A DNA stretch of 64,000 bases. Source: Candidatus Hydrogenedentota bacterium (lineage in GTDB: Bacteria; Hydrogenedentota; Hydrogenedentia; Hydrogenedentales; JAEUWI01). The position numbers were made by a program, and so were the translations under genes. Below are positions 30,967-61,196 of this stretch, in pieces. How positions within the stretch are numbered: the stretch's first letter is position 1; every line of letters begins with the position of its first letter. The stretch covers positions 1 to 64,000 of the forward strand of contig JACPGE010000036.1 of NCBI GenBank assembly GCA_016182605.1, in the 5' to 3' direction. Below the pieces are notes generated by a model that searched no databases, was not told where the DNA came from, and was given only the letters and a program-made list of their open reading frames with translations.

Positions 30967-31073
30967 AACCCGCATATTTCACCACTTTGCGACCTCCGGA
31001 TCGCATTCGGATTGGCAACGTGGTGAAATATGCTCAGCGTAACGTCGATGCTGGCGTTCATCGGGCAGGCTAA
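30967..31073. repeat. Dispersed hairpin repeat, truncated copy
   Basis: This segment is the near reverse complement of the centre of the element at 56698-57080. It contains the 13-bp perfect inverted repeat CATATTTCACCAC (30973-30985) and GTGGTGAAATATG (31020-31032) and ends in CGGGCAGGCTAA. The outer TAAATCACGGGCT module is missing. It lies between the TIR-like and Na/Pi symporter genes; the rest of the 558-base gap (30555-31112) shows no gene. Confidence 0.8.
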
Positions 31074-52261: not shown

Positions 52262-52276
52262 GGGGAGAGTTGGAAG

Positions 52277-52330
52277 GTGGTGAAATATGTTCGTCGCGAG
52301 GCCGGTGCTGGCGTTCCCTGGGCAGGCTAA
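52277..52330. repeat. Dispersed hairpin repeat, short copy
   Basis: GTGGTGAAATATG followed by GGTGCTGGCGTTC and GGGCAGGCTAA matches the right side of the copy at 30967-31073 and the reverse complement of 56807-56853. Only one arm is present. Confidence 0.7.
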
Positions 52331-52480
52331 AATGGATGAGATGGGCCCTTGGGGGACGAAGGGTCTATTGCCCGACATGAGACCCGGCCGGGAGAGAATA
52401 TATTCAAGTCCGGGGGTGTTTGTACAATCGCGTGCCGGGAGGCGGAAGGTCTTGCGGCAGAACAACCATAAGGAATGGAT

Positions 52481-53647: not shown

Positions 53648-53820
53648 AGCGCAACGCGCGGGGGCCATCCGCATCTGGCGGCGGGCCGCGTGTGCCGCGT
53701 GGAGCGGGGGCGGCCGTAAGATGCGGGTCATTGGAAACCATCGGCCGGACTGGGGGATAATCAGGCGAGTGTACAGTGTGCCGCGTTTTCCCCGCGCAAT
53801 CGTTCTGGAGGTTGAGACTC

Positions 53821-56700
53821 ATGCGTTGCTTTGAGCCGATCGCAGTATTGCTGGTCTGCACGCTCGCTGCGTGCAGTTCGCAAACCACGGATGCGCCCGG
53901 GACCGGCCCGGCTGCGGAGGGCCGTGCCGTATCCGCTGCCGATTCGAATGTCCCGGAGAGACCCTATCAGGTCTATCGCGGCGCAACGATGCCGCGCATG
54001 GGCATATTCGATGCGTTCAAGCTGCCGGAAGAACTGCCGGGAATGGGCGTGGCGCCCCTGCCCTCGCTGGAGTGGAATGTGACGCGTCTTGCGGCGATGG
54101 GCAGCCTGCACCAGGCCAGCAAGGCGGGGGCTTTGTATGTCGTCGAGGATTTCCTGGATCGCCATGCAGCGGTGGACGTGCCCGATGAATCGGGGATGTT
54201 TCCCCTGCTCTATGCGGCGGAAGGGGGCCACGCGCACGTGCTGGACAGTCTGCTTCGCGCGGGGGCCAGCAAAGAGGCGCGCGACCGGCTGGGCAATTCC
54301 GCGGTGCATCTTGCAGCGCGGGCGGCGCAACTCTACACGTTGACTTTTTTGCAGCAGCGCGGCTTCGATCTGAACGCCCGGAATGGACGGAATTACACGG
54401 CGCTGCATGAGCTGGCGGCGTCGGGCGATGTAGAGACTTCACGGCGGCTTCTGGCATTGAAAGCGGACTACACCCTGCTTTCCGAGCCTGGCCAATTGAG
54501 CATCCCGATGATCATTGCGGAGCGCGCAGGGCAATTTGAGACGGCGCAGCTCTACCGGGAATTCGGCCTGGAATTGGGCCTGGATCAAGCTATTGCCTTC
54601 GGCGACTACGCCTATGCGGAAGCTATCCATAGAAAGTATCCTGAATCCATCAATCAAGCGACCTTGAGCGGTTCGACGCCCATGACCGTAGCCGTTAGCT
54701 CGGGCAATATAGAGGGGATGGCGTGGCTCCTTGAGCGTGGCGCAAAACTGGTCTTGGATGAAATGGGCGATGGCGACGATTACCTGGCGATTGCGGCCCG
54801 CCATGGCCAGAAGGAGGCGATAAAGCTGTTGCTTGCGCACGGCGCGGACTTGAACCGGCCGGGTCTGGCGCTGAACGGGGAGAACTTGCTGCCGAATATT
54901 GTTCGCGCGGGCGCCGTGGATATGGTTTCTTTCTTGATAGAACTTGGCGCAAACGTGAACCTTGCGAATCCCAAGGACGGCTGCACGGCGCTGCATGCCG
55001 CCATGGACACGGCAGATACCGCCATGGCCGGGCTGCTTCTGGCCAAGGGCGCGCGCGCCGACGCGAGGAACAGTGCGGGGGATACGCCGTTGCACCGTGC
55101 GGTGCGCAACAACCGTATTGAGCATGTTCGCGCGCTGCTGGAGCATCATGTGGACATCAACGCGCTCGCGAATCCCCCGGCAACCGCGCTGCATCTGGCA
55201 GTCAGCGAAGAACGCGCAGACATTGCCGCCCTGCTCATCGAACGGGGCGCCGATCTCAGCAAGCCGAATGAGGCCGGGGATACCGCACTGCATCTGGCCG
55301 CCACATCCGGGCAGGATACGGTCATTGCCGCTCTGTTGGGAAAAGGCGCTCCTATCGATGCCCTGAACCGGGAGCAGGCGACACCGCTGCACGGGGCGTC
55401 GGCGACGGGCCAACTGAGCGCGGCCCAGCGGCTGATCGAATCCGGCGCCGCAATCGACGCGGGAGACCGGCAGCAGCAATCGCCGCTGTACCTGGCCATT
55501 CTGAACGGCCATCTTGCGCTTGCACAAATGTTGCATGGGGCGGGCGCCGCCCTGGATCAGAAGGACCGGCAAGGTCAGGGGTGCCTCTTCGCGGCCGTTC
55601 GGCAGGGTGACGTGACGTTGCTTCAATGGTTGCTGGACCTTGAGCTGAGCCCCGTGGAAAGCAACCGGGCCGGGCAATCTCCGCTGCATCTGGCGGTTGA
55701 ATTCGCCAGCCTGGAAAGTGTCAGTCTGCTTTTGGACCGTGGGGCCGATCCCAACGCGGCGGACGGGCAGTCCCGTTCGCCGCTGCACATTGCCGCCCGG
55801 CGTGGCAACAAACCGATATTGAATCGGCTGCTGATAGCCGGGGCCAATCCCGGCGTATTGGATCATCAGGGGCGCTCGCTGCTGCACGAGGTGGCGGAAG
55901 GATCGGGGCCGTCTATGTTGCCGCTGCTGCTTGCCAAAGGCTTGGACATCAACGCCGCGGATGCCAATGGCAATACGCCGTTGCATACCGCGGCCATGCG
56001 TGGCAACTACCCGTGCCTGCAGGCGCTTGTGACCCAAGGGGCCGTGCTCACGCTGAAAAACAAGCGCGGCGAAACAGCGCTGGCCACCGGAGAAGCGTTT
56101 CAAAAGAATGTCAAAATCCGGGATGACGCAAACGCCAGCGGCCTCGCGCGCCGCAATGGCTTGTTGCGTTGCTGCATGACCTTGCGCGCGGCCGTCTACG
56201 AGTCCCTCTGTTCGGCGGTGCGTGGCGGCGATGCCGCCGGGATTGCCGCGATTCTCGACGCTTATCCCGATTTCACGGGGCGTCTGTACGCCAATTTGGC
56301 TCCGGTGCACCATGCGGCCCGGTCTGGAGCGACCGTGTCACTGGCGGCACTGCGCGATCGCGGCGCGAATCTAGACATGCCCTCCGGTCCGCCACGCCAT
56401 GAGACGCCGTTGCACTTGGCGGCAGTGAATGGGCAATTGGATACCGTGGCGTGGCTGATCGAGGCGGGTGCGGACAAAGACGCAACCGATGCGCAGGGTC
56501 AAACCGCGGCGGCCGCAGCCGAAGGCAGCGCGAAACCCTGGATGGCCGCCTTTGTGAAGGGGGAGAGTACGCTCGGGGAGGCACGGGCGCAAATGGCGGC
56601 GAATGAGGCAGAAAACGCGCAGAAAAAGCCGGGACTCTTCAATCTCAAAGGGGGGCGCAAGCTTTCCGGCGCCTTCCGAATCAAGGTGCCCAAGCCTTAG
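53821..56700 (+). CDS. Large ankyrin-repeat lipoprotein
   Basis: A 959-residue exported lipoprotein. The leader ends in the lipobox LAAC (IAVLLVCTLAACSS), about 70 low-complexity residues follow, and then more than twenty ankyrin repeats, each about 33 residues with the usual TPLHxAA and LLxxGA pattern (for example DTPLHRAVRNNRIEHVRALL, GDTALHLAATSGQDTVIAAL, RSPLHIAARRGNKPILNRLL). The last 60 residues are basic and charged (KKPGLFNLKGGRKLSG). Ankyrin arrays bind proteins; the partner is unknown. GGAGG lies 9 nt before the ATG. The stop codon TAG is the first three bases of the inverted-repeat element that follows, so the native end may have been changed by its insertion. Confidence 0.93.
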   Translation: MRCFEPIAVLLVCTLAACSSQTTDAPGTGPAAEGRAVSAADSNVPERPYQVYRGATMPRMGIFDAFKLPEELPGMGVAPLPSLEWNVTRLAAMGSLHQASKAGALYVVEDFLDRHAAVDVPDESGMFPLLYAAEGGHAHVLDSLLRAGASKEARDRLGNSAVHLAARAAQLYTLTFLQQRGFDLNARNGRNYTALHELAASGDVETSRRLLALKADYTLLSEPGQLSIPMIIAERAGQFETAQLYREFGLELGLDQAIAFGDYAYAEAIHRKYPESINQATLSGSTPMTVAVSSGNIEGMAWLLERGAKLVLDEMGDGDDYLAIAARHGQKEAIKLLLAHGADLNRPGLALNGENLLPNIVRAGAVDMVSFLIELGANVNLANPKDGCTALHAAMDTADTAMAGLLLAKGARADARNSAGDTPLHRAVRNNRIEHVRALLEHHVDINALANPPATALHLAVSEERADIAALLIERGADLSKPNEAGDTALHLAATSGQDTVIAALLGKGAPIDALNREQATPLHGASATGQLSAAQRLIESGAAIDAGDRQQQSPLYLAILNGHLALAQMLHGAGAALDQKDRQGQGCLFAAVRQGDVTLLQWLLDLELSPVESNRAGQSPLHLAVEFASLESVSLLLDRGADPNAADGQSRSPLHIAARRGNKPILNRLLIAGANPGVLDHQGRSLLHEVAEGSGPSMLPLLLAKGLDINAADANGNTPLHTAAMRGNYPCLQALVTQGAVLTLKNKRGETALATGEAFQKNVKIRDDANASGLARRNGLLRCCMTLRAAVYESLCSAVRGGDAAGIAAILDAYPDFTGRLYANLAPVHHAARSGATVSLAALRDRGANLDMPSGPPRHETPLHLAAVNGQLDTVAWLIEAGADKDATDAQGQTAAAAAEGSAKPWMAAFVKGESTLGEARAQMAANEAENAQKKPGLFNLKGGRKLSGAFRIKVPKP

Positions 56701-57080
56701 CCCGGATAAATCACGGGCTTCATGCGTTCGTTCCATAACTCCATCCCACACCCGTCGTTGCGGCAGCATGCACAGCGGTACCGCCAGACAGCCCGTGATT
56801 TAGCCTGCTTGGTGAACGCCAGCACCATCGCCACGCTGAGCATATTTCACCACGTTGCCAATCCGAATGCGATCCGGAAGTCGCAAAGTGGTGAAATATG
56901 CGGGTTAGCAGTCTGCCGGACTTAGCCCGAATTGGGCTGAAAAGGCCGCCGTTTGGAAGTGTTCACCGGGCGGGCTAAATCACGGGCTGTCTGTTATTTC
57001 CGGATCCAAGGTTTGGGCAACAACAAGTGTGAGTGAGAGTTATGGCTCTGTCGGCTGGAGCCCGTGATTTATCCGGGCTA
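56698..57080. mobile_element. 383-bp inverted-repeat (MITE-like) element
   Basis: TAGCCCGGATAAATCACGGGCT (22 bases; 56698-56719) is the perfect reverse complement of 57059-57080. Inside, each half is a hairpin module: TAAATCACGGGCT pairs with AGCCCGTGATTTA at 56790-56802 on the left, and 56976-56988 pairs with 57059-57071 on the right. Between them is CATATTTCACCAC/GTGGTGAAATATG (56841-56853, 56888-56900). No transposase is encoded. The element fills the gap between two converging genes, and its ends supply TAG stops to both. Partial copies lie at 30967, 52277 and 61060. Confidence 0.85.
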
Positions 57081-58148
57081 CGCGCGCCGCTTCCGCGGCT
57101 TTGGCTTGAGCGCCGTACCGGAAGCAGGCTTGCCGGCCTGCAAGGCCCGGGAAATGGCGCGCGCCGGTCTACTTCGCGATTCCGATCGGGTTCCCGTCAA
57201 TGCCGTTACCGTTGACTTGCTCTTGAGCACAGGCTTGGCCTTGGATTCTGTTTGGGGTCTGGCCTTGGGCTTCGCCTTGGGTCCAGCTTTGGGCTTTGCC
57301 TTGAGTTTCGCCTTGGGTCCAGCTTTGGATTTGGTTTTAGCTTGGGAAGCTATTCCGCGCTTCGTATTCTTCCGGTCGCGCCCGGCGGGTTTGGCCGTGC
57401 CGGCCCGCGCCTTTCTCCGGGGCTTTGCCAGCGCGACCGCGCTGGGCCCGGTCTCAAATTCGATGCCGAATATGCCGCTCAGGGCGTCGCTGGAGAGAAC
57501 GTTGTCCGCGATGGCGCGCGCGGCCAGGGGCACCGCCATGTCGACAGCGACCAATTCCTGCGCATCCACATTGCGCAAGACAAAGAGCAATTCGGGTTGT
57601 GTGTCGAGCTTGTTGCCCACGCCGTAAAGGACCGCGGCCACGTGCTTGCACATCGTGGCCCAGTCCGGGCAATTGCACTGGAGCGCGATCTCTTCCGGTT
57701 GGGGAAACAATCCATGCTCCCGGTCGGTCACGACAGTCATGACTTCATTGGAGAGTTTTCCCTGAAGCAACTCCAGCATGGAGCCGATTTGGCCGGCGCA
57801 ATTTTTCTTGATGCGTTTCCAGGCCGCCGGCTTCAATTCCTTGATCTGAATGGAAAGCGTGTAGAGCGAGGAGCCCATGACCAGGGCTTCGATGCGTCCG
57901 GGCTGGATAGCCAAGTGGCAGACGGATCCATTGCGGACGTAGGCGCGTCCTCGGGGCAAGCGGTTCTCAAAGTCGGAGAACGACTCAAGGTGTTCGCACC
58001 AGCCCTTGCCCCAGAAACTGCGGGCGATCGTTTTTCCATCGAGTTCGACTGGCTGGGGCTTCTCGCCCTGTTTGAAGAGCAGCTTCAATTGTTTTTCGGC
58101 ACGGGCACGCCGCTGTGCCACCGGGACATAAGGCCTCCAAAATGACAT
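57078..58148 (-). CDS. SWIM zinc-finger protein with Lys/Ala/Pro-rich tail
   Basis: A 356-residue protein. The N-terminus (SFWRPYVPVAQRRARAEKQL) and a SWIM finger (CNCPDWATMCKHVAAVLYG, pattern CxCxnCxH) match proteins normally encoded beside SNF2-type helicases. Residues about 240-356 are a low-complexity basic tail of repeated KAKPKA/KAGPKA units ending in KPRKRRA, likely disordered and nucleic-acid binding. An AAGGAGG ribosome-binding site touches the first ATG and lies 6 nt before the second, so the second is chosen. It follows the SNF2 gene after 11 bases. Its stop codon TAG is formed by the end of the inverted-repeat element, so the tail may have been longer before. Confidence 0.9.
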   Translation of the reverse strand: MSFWRPYVPVAQRRARAEKQLKLLFKQGEKPQPVELDGKTIARSFWGKGWCEHLESFSDFENRLPRGRAYVRNGSVCHLAIQPGRIEALVMGSSLYTLSIQIKELKPAAWKRIKKNCAGQIGSMLELLQGKLSNEVMTVVTDREHGLFPQPEEIALQCNCPDWATMCKHVAAVLYGVGNKLDTQPELLFVLRNVDAQELVAVDMAVPLAARAIADNVLSSDALSGIFGIEFETGPSAVALAKPRRKARAGTAKPAGRDRKNTKRGIASQAKTKSKAGPKAKLKAKPKAGPKAKPKARPQTESKAKPVLKSKSTVTALTGTRSESRSRPARAISRALQAGKPASGTALKPKPRKRRA

Positions 58149-58159
58149 TGCCATCCTCC

Positions 58160-60835
58160 TTAGATTGCCGCGCGGGTCACGTCGAGGCGGACCAGGTTCA
58201 GCAGTTCATTGTCGGGCAGTTCGGTCAGGTTGAGTTCCCCGCCGCCCGGCAGAATTTCGTGGGCCAATTGCCGTTTTTCTTCGATCAGGGCATCAATATG
58301 CTCTTCCACCGTGCCGCTGGTGATGAATTTGTGAACCAGCACATTTTTTTTCTGGCCGATGCGAAACGCGCGGTCGGTGGCCTGGTTTTCGACGGCGGGG
58401 TTCCACCAGCGGTCAAAGTGAATGACTTGGGAGGCGGCGGTAAGGTTTAAGCCGGTGCCGCCCGCCTTGAGCGAGAGAATAAAGAATGGGGGGCCATCTT
58501 CCTGTTGGAACTGATCCACGATGGTCTTGCGTTTGGCCACGCTGGTGCCCCCGTGCAGCACCAGCCCGTCTCTTTGGAAAACCGGGGCCAGATGGGCCGC
58601 GAGCGGCGCGATAATCTCGCGAAATTGCGTGAATATGAGGACCTTTTCCTGGCGCTCCGCGAGTTCTTCGCAAATCTCCGCGAGGCGGAGAAACTTTCCG
58701 CTGTCTTGGGGATTAAAGTCGTTGTCGCCGCTGAACTGGCTCGGATGGTTGCAGATCTGCTTCAGGCGCATGAGGGATTGCAGCACGAGGCCGCGCCGTG
58801 CGATGCCTTGGGCGGAATCCAGGGCGGCTTTCAGATTGTCGATCGTTTTTTGGTAAAGCTTTACCTGCGTTTTTCCAAGCTGGCAATAGCCCGGTATTTC
58901 CGTCTTCTCCGGCAAATCGGCGATGATCGCTTTGTCCGTCTTCAGGCGGCGCAGGATGTAGGGGCCCACCAGTTGGCGCAATGGGGCAAACTGGTCGCGT
59001 TCCCGCCCTTGCAGGCTCTTGATGAAGGATTTGAAGACGGTGGCGGAACCCAAGAGGCCGGGATTGATGAAATCGAAGAGGGACCACAAATCGCCCATGC
59101 GGTTCTCGACCGGTGTGCCGGTCAGGGCAATGCGCACCTGGGCCTGGAGTCTCTTCACCGCCTTGCTCTGCCGCGTGGCGGGATTCTTGATCGCTTGGGC
59201 TTCATCAAGAATCACCATCCGCCAGTCGAATTGTTCCAGCCAGCCCTGGCGGTCCACCATGGAATATGTCGTAACAACGAGGTCGGCGTTGGCCAGGCGG
59301 CGCGCGGGCGCCTTGGCGATCTTTGCAAGTTCGTCCGGCGGCATCTCGGCCGAATGGAGAAAGACCAGATTGAGGGAGGGTGCGAAGCGCGTGGCTTCGC
59401 TTCTCCAATTGCCGAGGAGTGAAGCCGGCACAATGAGTAAGGAGGGGGCGCGCCGCTTCACACCGGCGCCGCGTTGGCACAATAACAGGGCCAGCACCTG
59501 AATGGTCTTGCCCAGTCCCATGTCGTCGGCCAGACAAGCGCCCAGACCGAGTTCCGACAGAAACCGCAGCCAAGCCAGTCCATCGCGTTGATAGGGGCGC
59601 AGCGTGGCCCGCAGGGCGCCGCCCGGATTGGCCTCATCGAGCCGGCCGGGATCGCGGAGCGCGGAGAGCACTTCTCTCATCTGGCTGCCTGCCGCGATGT
59701 GTACCCAGGAGCGTTCTTGATCGGCCGATGCTTCATGCTTCAGGTCCAGCGGGGCTCCTGCAAGCAAGCGCATACCTTCGACAAAGGAAATCTCCCCGTT
59801 GATGGCCTGATGCTGGAGGGTTTCCCAGTGTTCCACGGCCTCCCGCAGTTTTTCCCGGTCCACTTCCACCCACTGGCCTTTGAGCTGCACCAGACCATCC
59901 TCACCGGCGAGCAGCTCTTTCAGGTCTTGCTTCGAAAGGGTTTCGTCCCCCAGCGCCAGGCGGATGTCAAAGTCCAGCATGGCGCCCACCCCGAGGGTCG
60001 ATTTCTTCTGCTCGCCGATGGTCACTTGGACTTGGGGGCGGGAACGTTTCTGCCACCAGTTGGGCAGGCGAACCGCAAGACCGCTTTCCTCCAGATCCGG
60101 GACGCTGCGGAGGAATTGGTAAGCGCGTTCGGCGGACCAAGCCATGGGCTGGTAGATTTCGCCGGAATCGACGAGGGATTTTACCCAGCCGCATCGGCCT
60201 GTGGCCTGCAAAACGGGCAAGAGCAACTTGATGAGCGCAGGCCGGTTCTTTGTGCCCGTGTATTCTTCGAGGGCCTTGCGCAATGGCAAATGCTTCAGTT
60301 CCCCGCCCGCCCTGAAGCCTGCCGTATAGGTTGCCATGAAGGCAAAGGGCCGCGCCGCATCGCTTTTGTTTTCCGCGAGATGGAAGCAGACCCGGCCCAC
60401 CTGGCGCCACTTCGGCGCGCGATCCGCCAGAAAAGATTCCAGTCCCCCCGCCCGGGTAACGGCGTCATGGACCCAGCAGTCCAGTGCCGTCCAAATCGAT
60501 TGTAGCAAGAGCGGGGAGAGATACTCCCCGCCTTTCATGGGAGGCGCAGCGAAGACCCGGCTCGCGAAGTCCGCGTGCGAGGGCGTCTCAACGGTAAACG
60601 CCGCCGCTTCCGCCGGTATGTGGCACAACCCGGTCAGATAATGCTCGGCGAGTTCCCGCCAGTATTTTGAGGTGGGCGAGGCATCCGCTCGGGACTTCTC
60701 CGCAGCCAGCGTGAAGAGCCCCTCGCACCAATTCGATTCAAAAACACCCTGCAAGGCTGGCGCCGGAGTGGATTCTGTCCCCTCTTCGGATCGATCCCAA
60801 CGCAGGCTTCCACCCGGTGTCAAACGTATTTCCAT
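58160..60835 (-). CDS. SNF2-family DEAD/DEAH-box helicase
   Basis: An 891-residue SWI2/SNF2 ATPase. The N-terminal about 400 residues are a bacterial SNF2-associated region; then the motor: ADDMGLGKTIQVLAL (Walker A), MVILDEAQAIKN (motif II), ALTGTPVENRMGDLW (motif III), VLIFTQFREI (motif IV), LKAGGTGLNLTAAS (V) and ATDRAFRIGQKKNV (VI). Such proteins translocate on DNA or remodel bound proteins, and they often pair with a SWIM-finger protein, as here. The start is uncertain: the internal Met (MEIRLTPGGSLRWD) is chosen; an ATG at 60940 would add 35 residues. Neither has a good ribosome-binding site. No nuclease or methylase is adjacent. Confidence 0.93.
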   Translation of the reverse strand: MEIRLTPGGSLRWDRSEEGTESTPAPALQGVFESNWCEGLFTLAAEKSRADASPTSKYWRELAEHYLTGLCHIPAEAAAFTVETPSHADFASRVFAAPPMKGGEYLSPLLLQSIWTALDCWVHDAVTRAGGLESFLADRAPKWRQVGRVCFHLAENKSDAARPFAFMATYTAGFRAGGELKHLPLRKALEEYTGTKNRPALIKLLLPVLQATGRCGWVKSLVDSGEIYQPMAWSAERAYQFLRSVPDLEESGLAVRLPNWWQKRSRPQVQVTIGEQKKSTLGVGAMLDFDIRLALGDETLSKQDLKELLAGEDGLVQLKGQWVEVDREKLREAVEHWETLQHQAINGEISFVEGMRLLAGAPLDLKHEASADQERSWVHIAAGSQMREVLSALRDPGRLDEANPGGALRATLRPYQRDGLAWLRFLSELGLGACLADDMGLGKTIQVLALLLCQRGAGVKRRAPSLLIVPASLLGNWRSEATRFAPSLNLVFLHSAEMPPDELAKIAKAPARRLANADLVVTTYSMVDRQGWLEQFDWRMVILDEAQAIKNPATRQSKAVKRLQAQVRIALTGTPVENRMGDLWSLFDFINPGLLGSATVFKSFIKSLQGRERDQFAPLRQLVGPYILRRLKTDKAIIADLPEKTEIPGYCQLGKTQVKLYQKTIDNLKAALDSAQGIARRGLVLQSLMRLKQICNHPSQFSGDNDFNPQDSGKFLRLAEICEELAERQEKVLIFTQFREIIAPLAAHLAPVFQRDGLVLHGGTSVAKRKTIVDQFQQEDGPPFFILSLKAGGTGLNLTAASQVIHFDRWWNPAVENQATDRAFRIGQKKNVLVHKFITSGTVEEHIDALIEEKRQLAHEILPGGGELNLTELPDNELLNLVRLDVTRAAI

Positions 60836-61059
60836 CGTGTACCCATGCCACGTGATTGCTGCGGACTGAGCGCCCCCGGATTGGAAAGATCCGGTTCGGG
60901 CGTCACTGACGCAGAAGTCTACCCCAAGTGCGTCCTTCATTTAAAAGATTTTGGGGCCCGGATGCTGCCCCAAAGGCGCGTGCTATCCTGGCGCGGCGGG
61001 GGGATAAGCAAAGATGTGGGGGAGCAAAGCCGAGTGCAACTCAGCGATTTCTCTGGCGC

Positions 61060-61196
61060 GTGGCGATGGTGCTGGCGTTCACCGGGCAGGCTAAATCACG
61101 GGCTGTCTGGCGATGCCGCCGTACATGCCGTGGCCATTGTGGGTGCAAGAAGGGCTTAGGGAACAAAGGCATGGAGCCCGTGACTTATCGGCCTAA
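61060..61196. repeat. Dispersed hairpin module, one arm
   Basis: GGCGATGGTGCTGGCGTTCA and TAAATCACGGGCT (61092-61104), with a mate AGCCCGTGACTTA (61175-61187, one mismatch), match the left arm of the 56698-57080 element in reverse orientation. The element end reads ATCGGCCTAA instead of ATCCGGGCTA. The 525-base gap 60836-61361 holds no gene besides this repeat. Confidence 0.75.

What the first reader, a model, noticed from the sequence alone, without database searches (positions are those of the whole stretch)
56698..57080. MITE-like element whose ends supply stop codons to both flanking genes
The 22-bp perfect terminal inverted repeats start with TAG. Those three bases are the stop codon of the ankyrin lipoprotein gene on the left and, on the other strand, the stop codon of the SWIM-finger gene on the right. 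Each half is a separate hairpin module around a central hairpin, so the element looks like two inverted copies. Insertion at or near stop codons may be selected because TAG is part of the terminus.
Basis: seen in the sequence. Interest (0 to 1): 0.7.

Follow-up and report, generated by a model that had tools for sequence, protein, structure and literature searches.

The report
IS1380-type MITEs inserted at stop codons
Two copies of a small, non-coding jumping DNA element sit between two genes; the stop codons at their edges were not supplied by the element but lie in the short target sequence (YTAR) that it picks and duplicates, and that motif happens to spell a stop codon on both strands.

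Summary
The stretch is not one element. Copy A (56701-56904, 204 bp) is complete and flanked by a perfect 4-bp target duplication TTAG (56697-56700, 56905-56908). Copy B (57077 back to 56961, minus strand) is truncated, from another subfamily, and fused to a fragment of a second repeat. The "22-bp perfect TIR" is the same end (left) of both copies, facing outwards, plus 3 bp of target DNA. TAG is not part of the terminus: among 51 copies with identical flanking 4-mers the target is TTAG, CTAA, CTAG, TTAA, CTAT, ATAG or CTAC, consensus YTAR. Each gene's flank plus the adjoining YTAR copy is ancestral, so both stops predate the insertions. YTAR is palindromic and contains TAR (a stop) on both strands. 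13 of 44 insertions hit a stop codon against 9.4% of all YTAR (p=2e-4), but 17.6% of non-coding YTAR (OR 2.3, p=0.02). The helper is probably an IS1380-family (piggyBac-like) transposase: these lie beside the same end sequence in two other genomes, and complete plasmid IS1380s have near-identical ends and CTAG duplications. No IS1380 transposase was found in this genome. New member of a known kind.

The parts
56697..56700 (+). Left 4-bp target duplication TTAG of copy A; its TAG is the stop codon of the ankyrin-repeat gene
   Evidence: TTAG on both sides of 56701-56904; ORF 53776-56700
56701..56904 (+). Copy A: complete 204-bp IS1380-type MITE, TIR CCCGGATAAATCAC / CCCGCATATTTCAC
56704..56805 (+). 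Left hairpin module of copy A (arms 56704-56719 and 56790-56805)
   Evidence: (I4), consensus fold
56840..56901 (+). Right hairpin module of copy A (arms 56840-56858 and 56883-56901); resembles the independent 68-bp elements of the same genome
   Evidence: (I3)
56905..56908 (+). Right 4-bp target duplication TTAG of copy A
56908..56969 (+). Fragment of a second repeat with end GCAGTCTGCCGGACTT (83% identical to G000:C47:64689-64753); meets copy B at the 9-bp shared word GTTCACCGG (56961-56969)
56961..57077 (-). Copy B: truncated MITE of another subfamily (left module only), inverted relative to A
   Evidence: 98% to L142 over 120 bp
57078..57081 (-). CTAC, the surviving target-side 4-mer of copy B; read on the minus strand it is GTAG and holds the stop codon of the SWIM-motif gene; the partner duplication is lost with B's inner end
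   Evidence: unpaired end at 57077
53776..56700 (+). Left flanking gene: ankyrin-repeat protein with lipoprotein-like N terminus (GTG start as listed)
57078..58154 (-). Right flanking gene: protein with a CxC...CxH SWIM-like motif and K/A/P-rich tail, next to an SNF2-type helicase gene (58160-60940)
   Evidence: no Pfam match at E<=0.001, motif read by eye

Best explanation
The stretch is two independent insertions of a high-copy bacterial MITE of IS1380 type. The unit is ~204 bp: CCCGG... and CCCGC... termini, each folded back into its own hairpin, with a 36-bp conserved spacer and variable loops. Inferred step: an IS1380-family transposase, supplied in trans and not found in this assembly, cuts the element out by its CCCG ends and inserts it at the palindromic tetranucleotide YTAR, duplicating those 4 bp. 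Shown: the target duplication. Because YTAR contains TAR on both strands, an insertion into a YTAR that is a gene's stop leaves a complete stop on the gene side; the element contributes nothing to it. Copy A duplicated the TTAG holding the ankyrin gene's stop. Copy B entered at the YTAR-like GTAG holding the other gene's stop and later lost its inner half by a deletion, probably at the 9-bp word GTTCACCGG shared with a neighbouring repeat fragment.
For: Fixed ends and ~204-205 bp length in tens of copies. 176 end-sequence matches in the genome against 0 for the reversed control pattern. 51 copies with identical flanking 4-mers, 45 of them YTAR and all NTAN. An occupied copy and several empty copies of a host repeat: CTAG-MITE-CTAG against a single NTAR in the empty copies. 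The same ends and YTAR duplications in many other genomes. IS1380 transposase (NF033539, E 7e-118 and 1e-83) directly inside the same end sequence in L068 and L106. Complete plasmid IS1380s with TIR CCCGCATTTCTCACAG and TSD CTAG (L126, L130), and CCCGCATTTYTCACA with CTAG (L127). Target/stop-codon statistics.
Against: No IS1380 transposase was found in this genome by PF13701 or by protein search, so the helper is absent, missed in a 97.9%-complete assembly, or different. The transposase link rests on end sequence and target, not on an experiment. Copy B's second duplication is missing, so its target is inferred from one side only. No syntenic empty orthologous site was available.
Confidence: 0.87

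Rival explanations
1. One symmetrical MITE (56698-57080) whose TAG-starting ends supply stop codons, with insertion near stops selected for that reason.
For: Perfect 22-bp inverted repeat with TAG at both ends and both stops coinciding.
Against: No other copy spans the whole stretch; copies are ~204 bp. The bases at the TAG position vary with the target (TTAG, CTAA, TTAA, CTAT and others), and the empty sites carry one NTAR.
Confidence: 0.03
2. The helper is an IS5/IS427-like or other YTAR/TA-targeting transposase (IS5 group, IS630), not IS1380.
For: YTAR is also the reported target of IS711, an IS5-type element that duplicates TA (PMC2266754). No IS1380 transposase in this genome.
Against: Same end sequence adjoins IS1380 transposases in two genomes and matches complete IS1380 termini with 4-bp CTAG duplications. 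The duplication here is 4 bp, not TA alone. The DDE_Tnp_1 transposases examined here were ISAs1-type and IS1182-like, with no paired end of this kind around them.
Confidence: 0.1
3. A REP/BIME-type palindromic repeat moved by a RAYT (Y1) transposase, not a DDE-type MITE.
For: Hairpins at both ends, high copy number, intergenic, tandem arrays.
Against: Exact 4-bp target duplications in 51 copies and matched TIRs; REPs have none, as far as I know.
Confidence: 0.02
4. The transposase or its host has a true preference for stop codons beyond YTAR itself (for example via translation-termination or mRNA 3'-end features).
For: 13/40 non-coding, non-nested insertions at stops against 123/699 background non-coding YTAR (OR 2.3, one-sided p 0.02).
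Against: Against convergent intergenic YTAR the excess is not significant (13:5 v 123:93, p 0.23). Loss of insertions in promoters would give the same excess. Genes were called by a simple codon-usage script.
Confidence: 0.12

Closest known systems
IS1380 family insertion sequences (NF033539 / PF13701; piggyBac-like)
   Same: Termini CCCGCAT..TCAC and 4-bp CTAG/YTAR duplications in complete plasmid copies; same 16-17 bp end next to IS1380 transposase in L068 and L106
   Different: The window's elements are ~204 bp, encode nothing, and no IS1380 transposase was found in their genome
piggyBac (TTAA) transposons
   Same: 4-bp palindromic TTAA-like target; ends beginning CCC (PMC10813416)
   Different: Eukaryotic; strict TTAA rather than YTAR; IS1380 is used there as the outgroup
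Chunjie MITE of Geobacter uraniireducens
   Same: Bacterial MITE of 178-235 bp with tens of full and partial copies, intergenic (PMC10969869)
   Different: Sequence and target not compared: the original paper was not held
ISPsp10 (IS5/IS427 group) of Pseudomonas
   Same: A stop codon provided by the target site at insertion (PMC4133298)
   Different: There the target stop ends the element's own transposase gene; here it ends the host genes
QMITE2 of Coxiella burnetii
   Same: Hairpin MITE at a gene's 3' end affecting where the gene stops (PMC5896051)
   Different: It extends the gene; 7-11 bp variable duplications

Membership tests
Bacterial MITE | Short (<~500 bp), no transposase gene | tested here: met
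   204-205 bp unit, also 68-bp forms
Bacterial MITE | Terminal inverted repeats | tested here: met
   CCCGGATAAATCAC / CCCGCATATTTCAC, invariant in nearly all copies
Bacterial MITE | Target site duplication | tested here: met
   51 copies with identical 4 bp; related empty sites
Bacterial MITE | Many copies in one genome | tested here: met
   145 alignments, 176 end matches
Bacterial MITE | Related autonomous element in the same genome | tested here: not met
   PF13701 and P0001 searches negative; seen in other genomes only. Not strictly required of a MITE
IS1380 family (as source of the ends) | IS1380 transposase next to identical ends | tested here: met
   L068, L106, in other genomes
IS1380 family (as source of the ends) | Termini and target length as in complete IS1380s | tested here: met
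   L126, L127, L130; L128 looser
IS1380 family (as source of the ends) | Transposase acts on the 204-bp element | not testable with these tools
   Needs an assay
IS630/Tc1-type or IS427-type MITE | 2-bp TA duplication | tested here: not met
   Duplication is 4 bp, with the outer bases of the two copies matching
REP/BIME (RAYT) | No target duplication; RAYT gene | tested here: not met
   Target duplications present; RAYT gene not searched

The most novel reading that the evidence does not exclude
Insertion by this IS1380-type system is biased to stop codons beyond what YTAR density and loss of harmful insertions explain, so that YTAR targeting works as a 'safe-site' rule that parks elements exactly at gene ends while keeping both stops, and lets a transposase-less element reach ~150 copies in a genome without a detectable helper.
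Probability: 0.12. Interest if true: 0.55.

Novelty: new member of a known kind. Interest (0 to 1): 0.33.

Why it matters
It replaces 'an element that donates stop codons' with a simpler rule: a palindromic target that spells a stop on both strands lets a transposon land on gene ends without changing either protein. It ties a large family of short hairpin repeats, found in several phyla and not found described in the papers searched, to the IS1380/piggyBac-like transposases, and gives a defined end and target (YTAR|CCCGCATATTTCACCA) for annotating them.

Tried and rejected
IS630/TA-target idea from the nested copies: rejected once the outer bases of the target were seen to match. REP/BIME: rejected by target duplications. 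IS701 (PF13546) as helper: absent. The four DDE_Tnp_1 hits in the genome carry no paired end around a transposase; the two classified are ISAs1 and IS1182-like. Plasmid DNA search: no match. End sequence in papers: only unrelated primer-like matches. Rfam: nothing. Terminator function: two weak matches against one expected by chance. Syntenic empty sites in 40 relatives: element absent there, both genes diverged and not adjacent.

Full report
OBSERVATION. The 22-mer TAGCCCGGATAAATCACGGGCT is present exactly and inverted at 56698-56719 and 57059-57080; none is expected by chance at up to 3 mismatches. TAG at 56698-56700 closes the ankyrin-repeat ORF and CTA at 57078-57080 closes the minus-strand ORF. 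The interval folds strongly (z -13).

THE UNIT. A search of the window's own genome (6.76 Mb, 130 contigs, 97.9% complete) with the whole stretch gave 145 alignments. Complete matches cover query 8-220, i.e. ~204 bp, and a second set covers query 272-391 in the other orientation. No other place matches the whole stretch. The left half is therefore a complete element (A), and the right half is a partial copy (B) of another subfamily, 98% identical over 120 bp to copies elsewhere. The bases between A and B match a second repeat whose end is GCAGTCTGCCGGACTT (83% to G000:C47:64689-64753). That repeat and B share GTTCACCGG at the junction, which suggests a deletion at a short repeat (inference). 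The consensus of 49 copies is 204 bp, with two terminal hairpins, near-invariant stems and central spacer, and variable loops. Hairpin forms of 68-69 bp, with both ends CCCGCATATTTCACCA, also occur, two of them with identical target duplications. The 204-bp element thus looks like two short hairpin modules joined, with only the outer ends in use (inference).

TARGET. Copies whose two flanking 4-mers are identical number 51: TTAG 21, CTAA 11, CTAG 10, TTAA 3, CTAT 3, ATAG 2, CTAC 1. The logo is NTAN with Y/R outer bases and only weak preferences outside. One copy (L142) sits in a host repeat with many other copies, most of them without it; aligned empty copies show one NTAR where the filled copy has CTAG-element-CTAG. 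A has TTAG on both sides. B keeps CTAC on the gene side and has lost its other side.

STOP CODONS. Flank plus adjoining target copy is always ancestral sequence, so both stops predate the insertions. With a codon-usage gene caller on 1.26 Mb of this genome (86% coding, 1314 YTAR sites counted), 44 non-nested insertions fall 13 at stop codons, 4 inside genes and 27 in intergenic DNA; background YTAR fall 123, 615 and 573, with 3 at other gene edges. Against all YTAR the stop excess is OR 4.1, p 2e-4, and the shortage inside genes has p 1e-7. Against non-coding YTAR it is OR 2.3, one-sided p 0.02; against convergent intergenic YTAR it is not significant. Most of the association is explained by the target motif and by loss of insertions inside genes. 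A small extra bias is neither shown nor excluded. The stop-site calls rest on my own simple script, not on annotation.

HELPER. Paired ends there are mostly 120-390 bp apart, many with identical YTAR on both sides and without room for a transposase. In L068 (Opitutia) and L106 the same end directly adjoins an IS1380 transposase. Complete IS1380s on Pseudomonas/Stutzerimonas and Bradyrhizobium plasmids have ends CCCGCATTTCTCACAG / CCCGCATTTYTCACA and CTAG duplications. The window's genome has no detectable IS1380 transposase, and the 39 other genomes of the relatives search lack the element apart from one 33-bp match, so the expansion is peculiar to this lineage and its helper may be lost or unassembled.

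LITERATURE. MITEs of this kind are known in general (PMC10969869, PMC2229807). A stop codon provided by a transposition target has been reported for ISPsp10 (PMC4133298). YTAR is a reported target for IS711 (PMC2266754). piggyBac, for which IS1380 serves as outgroup, uses TTAA with CCC-starting ends (PMC10813416). Eight papers held both 'IS1380' and 'miniature inverted'; I opened three of them, and the passages found there describe no IS1380-derived MITE. That is a limited search.

VERDICT. A well-supported, mostly ordinary answer: two insertions of an IS1380-type MITE; the stops belong to the target.

Noticed in passing
L263:17410-17545 (G000:C45:97410-97545) and ~40 other places: A second intergenic repeat family of ~130 bp (core GGAATGCCTACGCTCGGCGAGCGAAGGCCTACTT...TAGCACGCTGCTCGCCGAGCGGCGTG), 44 matches in this genome, no Rfam match.
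   Followed up: partly
56908-56969; L212:1501-1720: Fragments of a third repeat with inverted ends GCAGTCTGCCGGACTT / AAGTCCGGCAGACTGC; in L212 a ~220-bp copy interrupts an IS1380-type MITE.
   Followed up: partly
L145, L173, L182, L184, L209 and others: MITE copies inserted into the YTAR of another copy, giving head-to-tail arrays that share one target 4-mer.
   Followed up: partly
window 30967-31073, 52267-52331, 61058-61189: Three further remnants of the same MITE family in the window.
   Followed up: no
L116 (G000:C4, around 106798-107304): A ~210-bp MITE copy lies at or inside a DDE transposase gene match.
   Followed up: no
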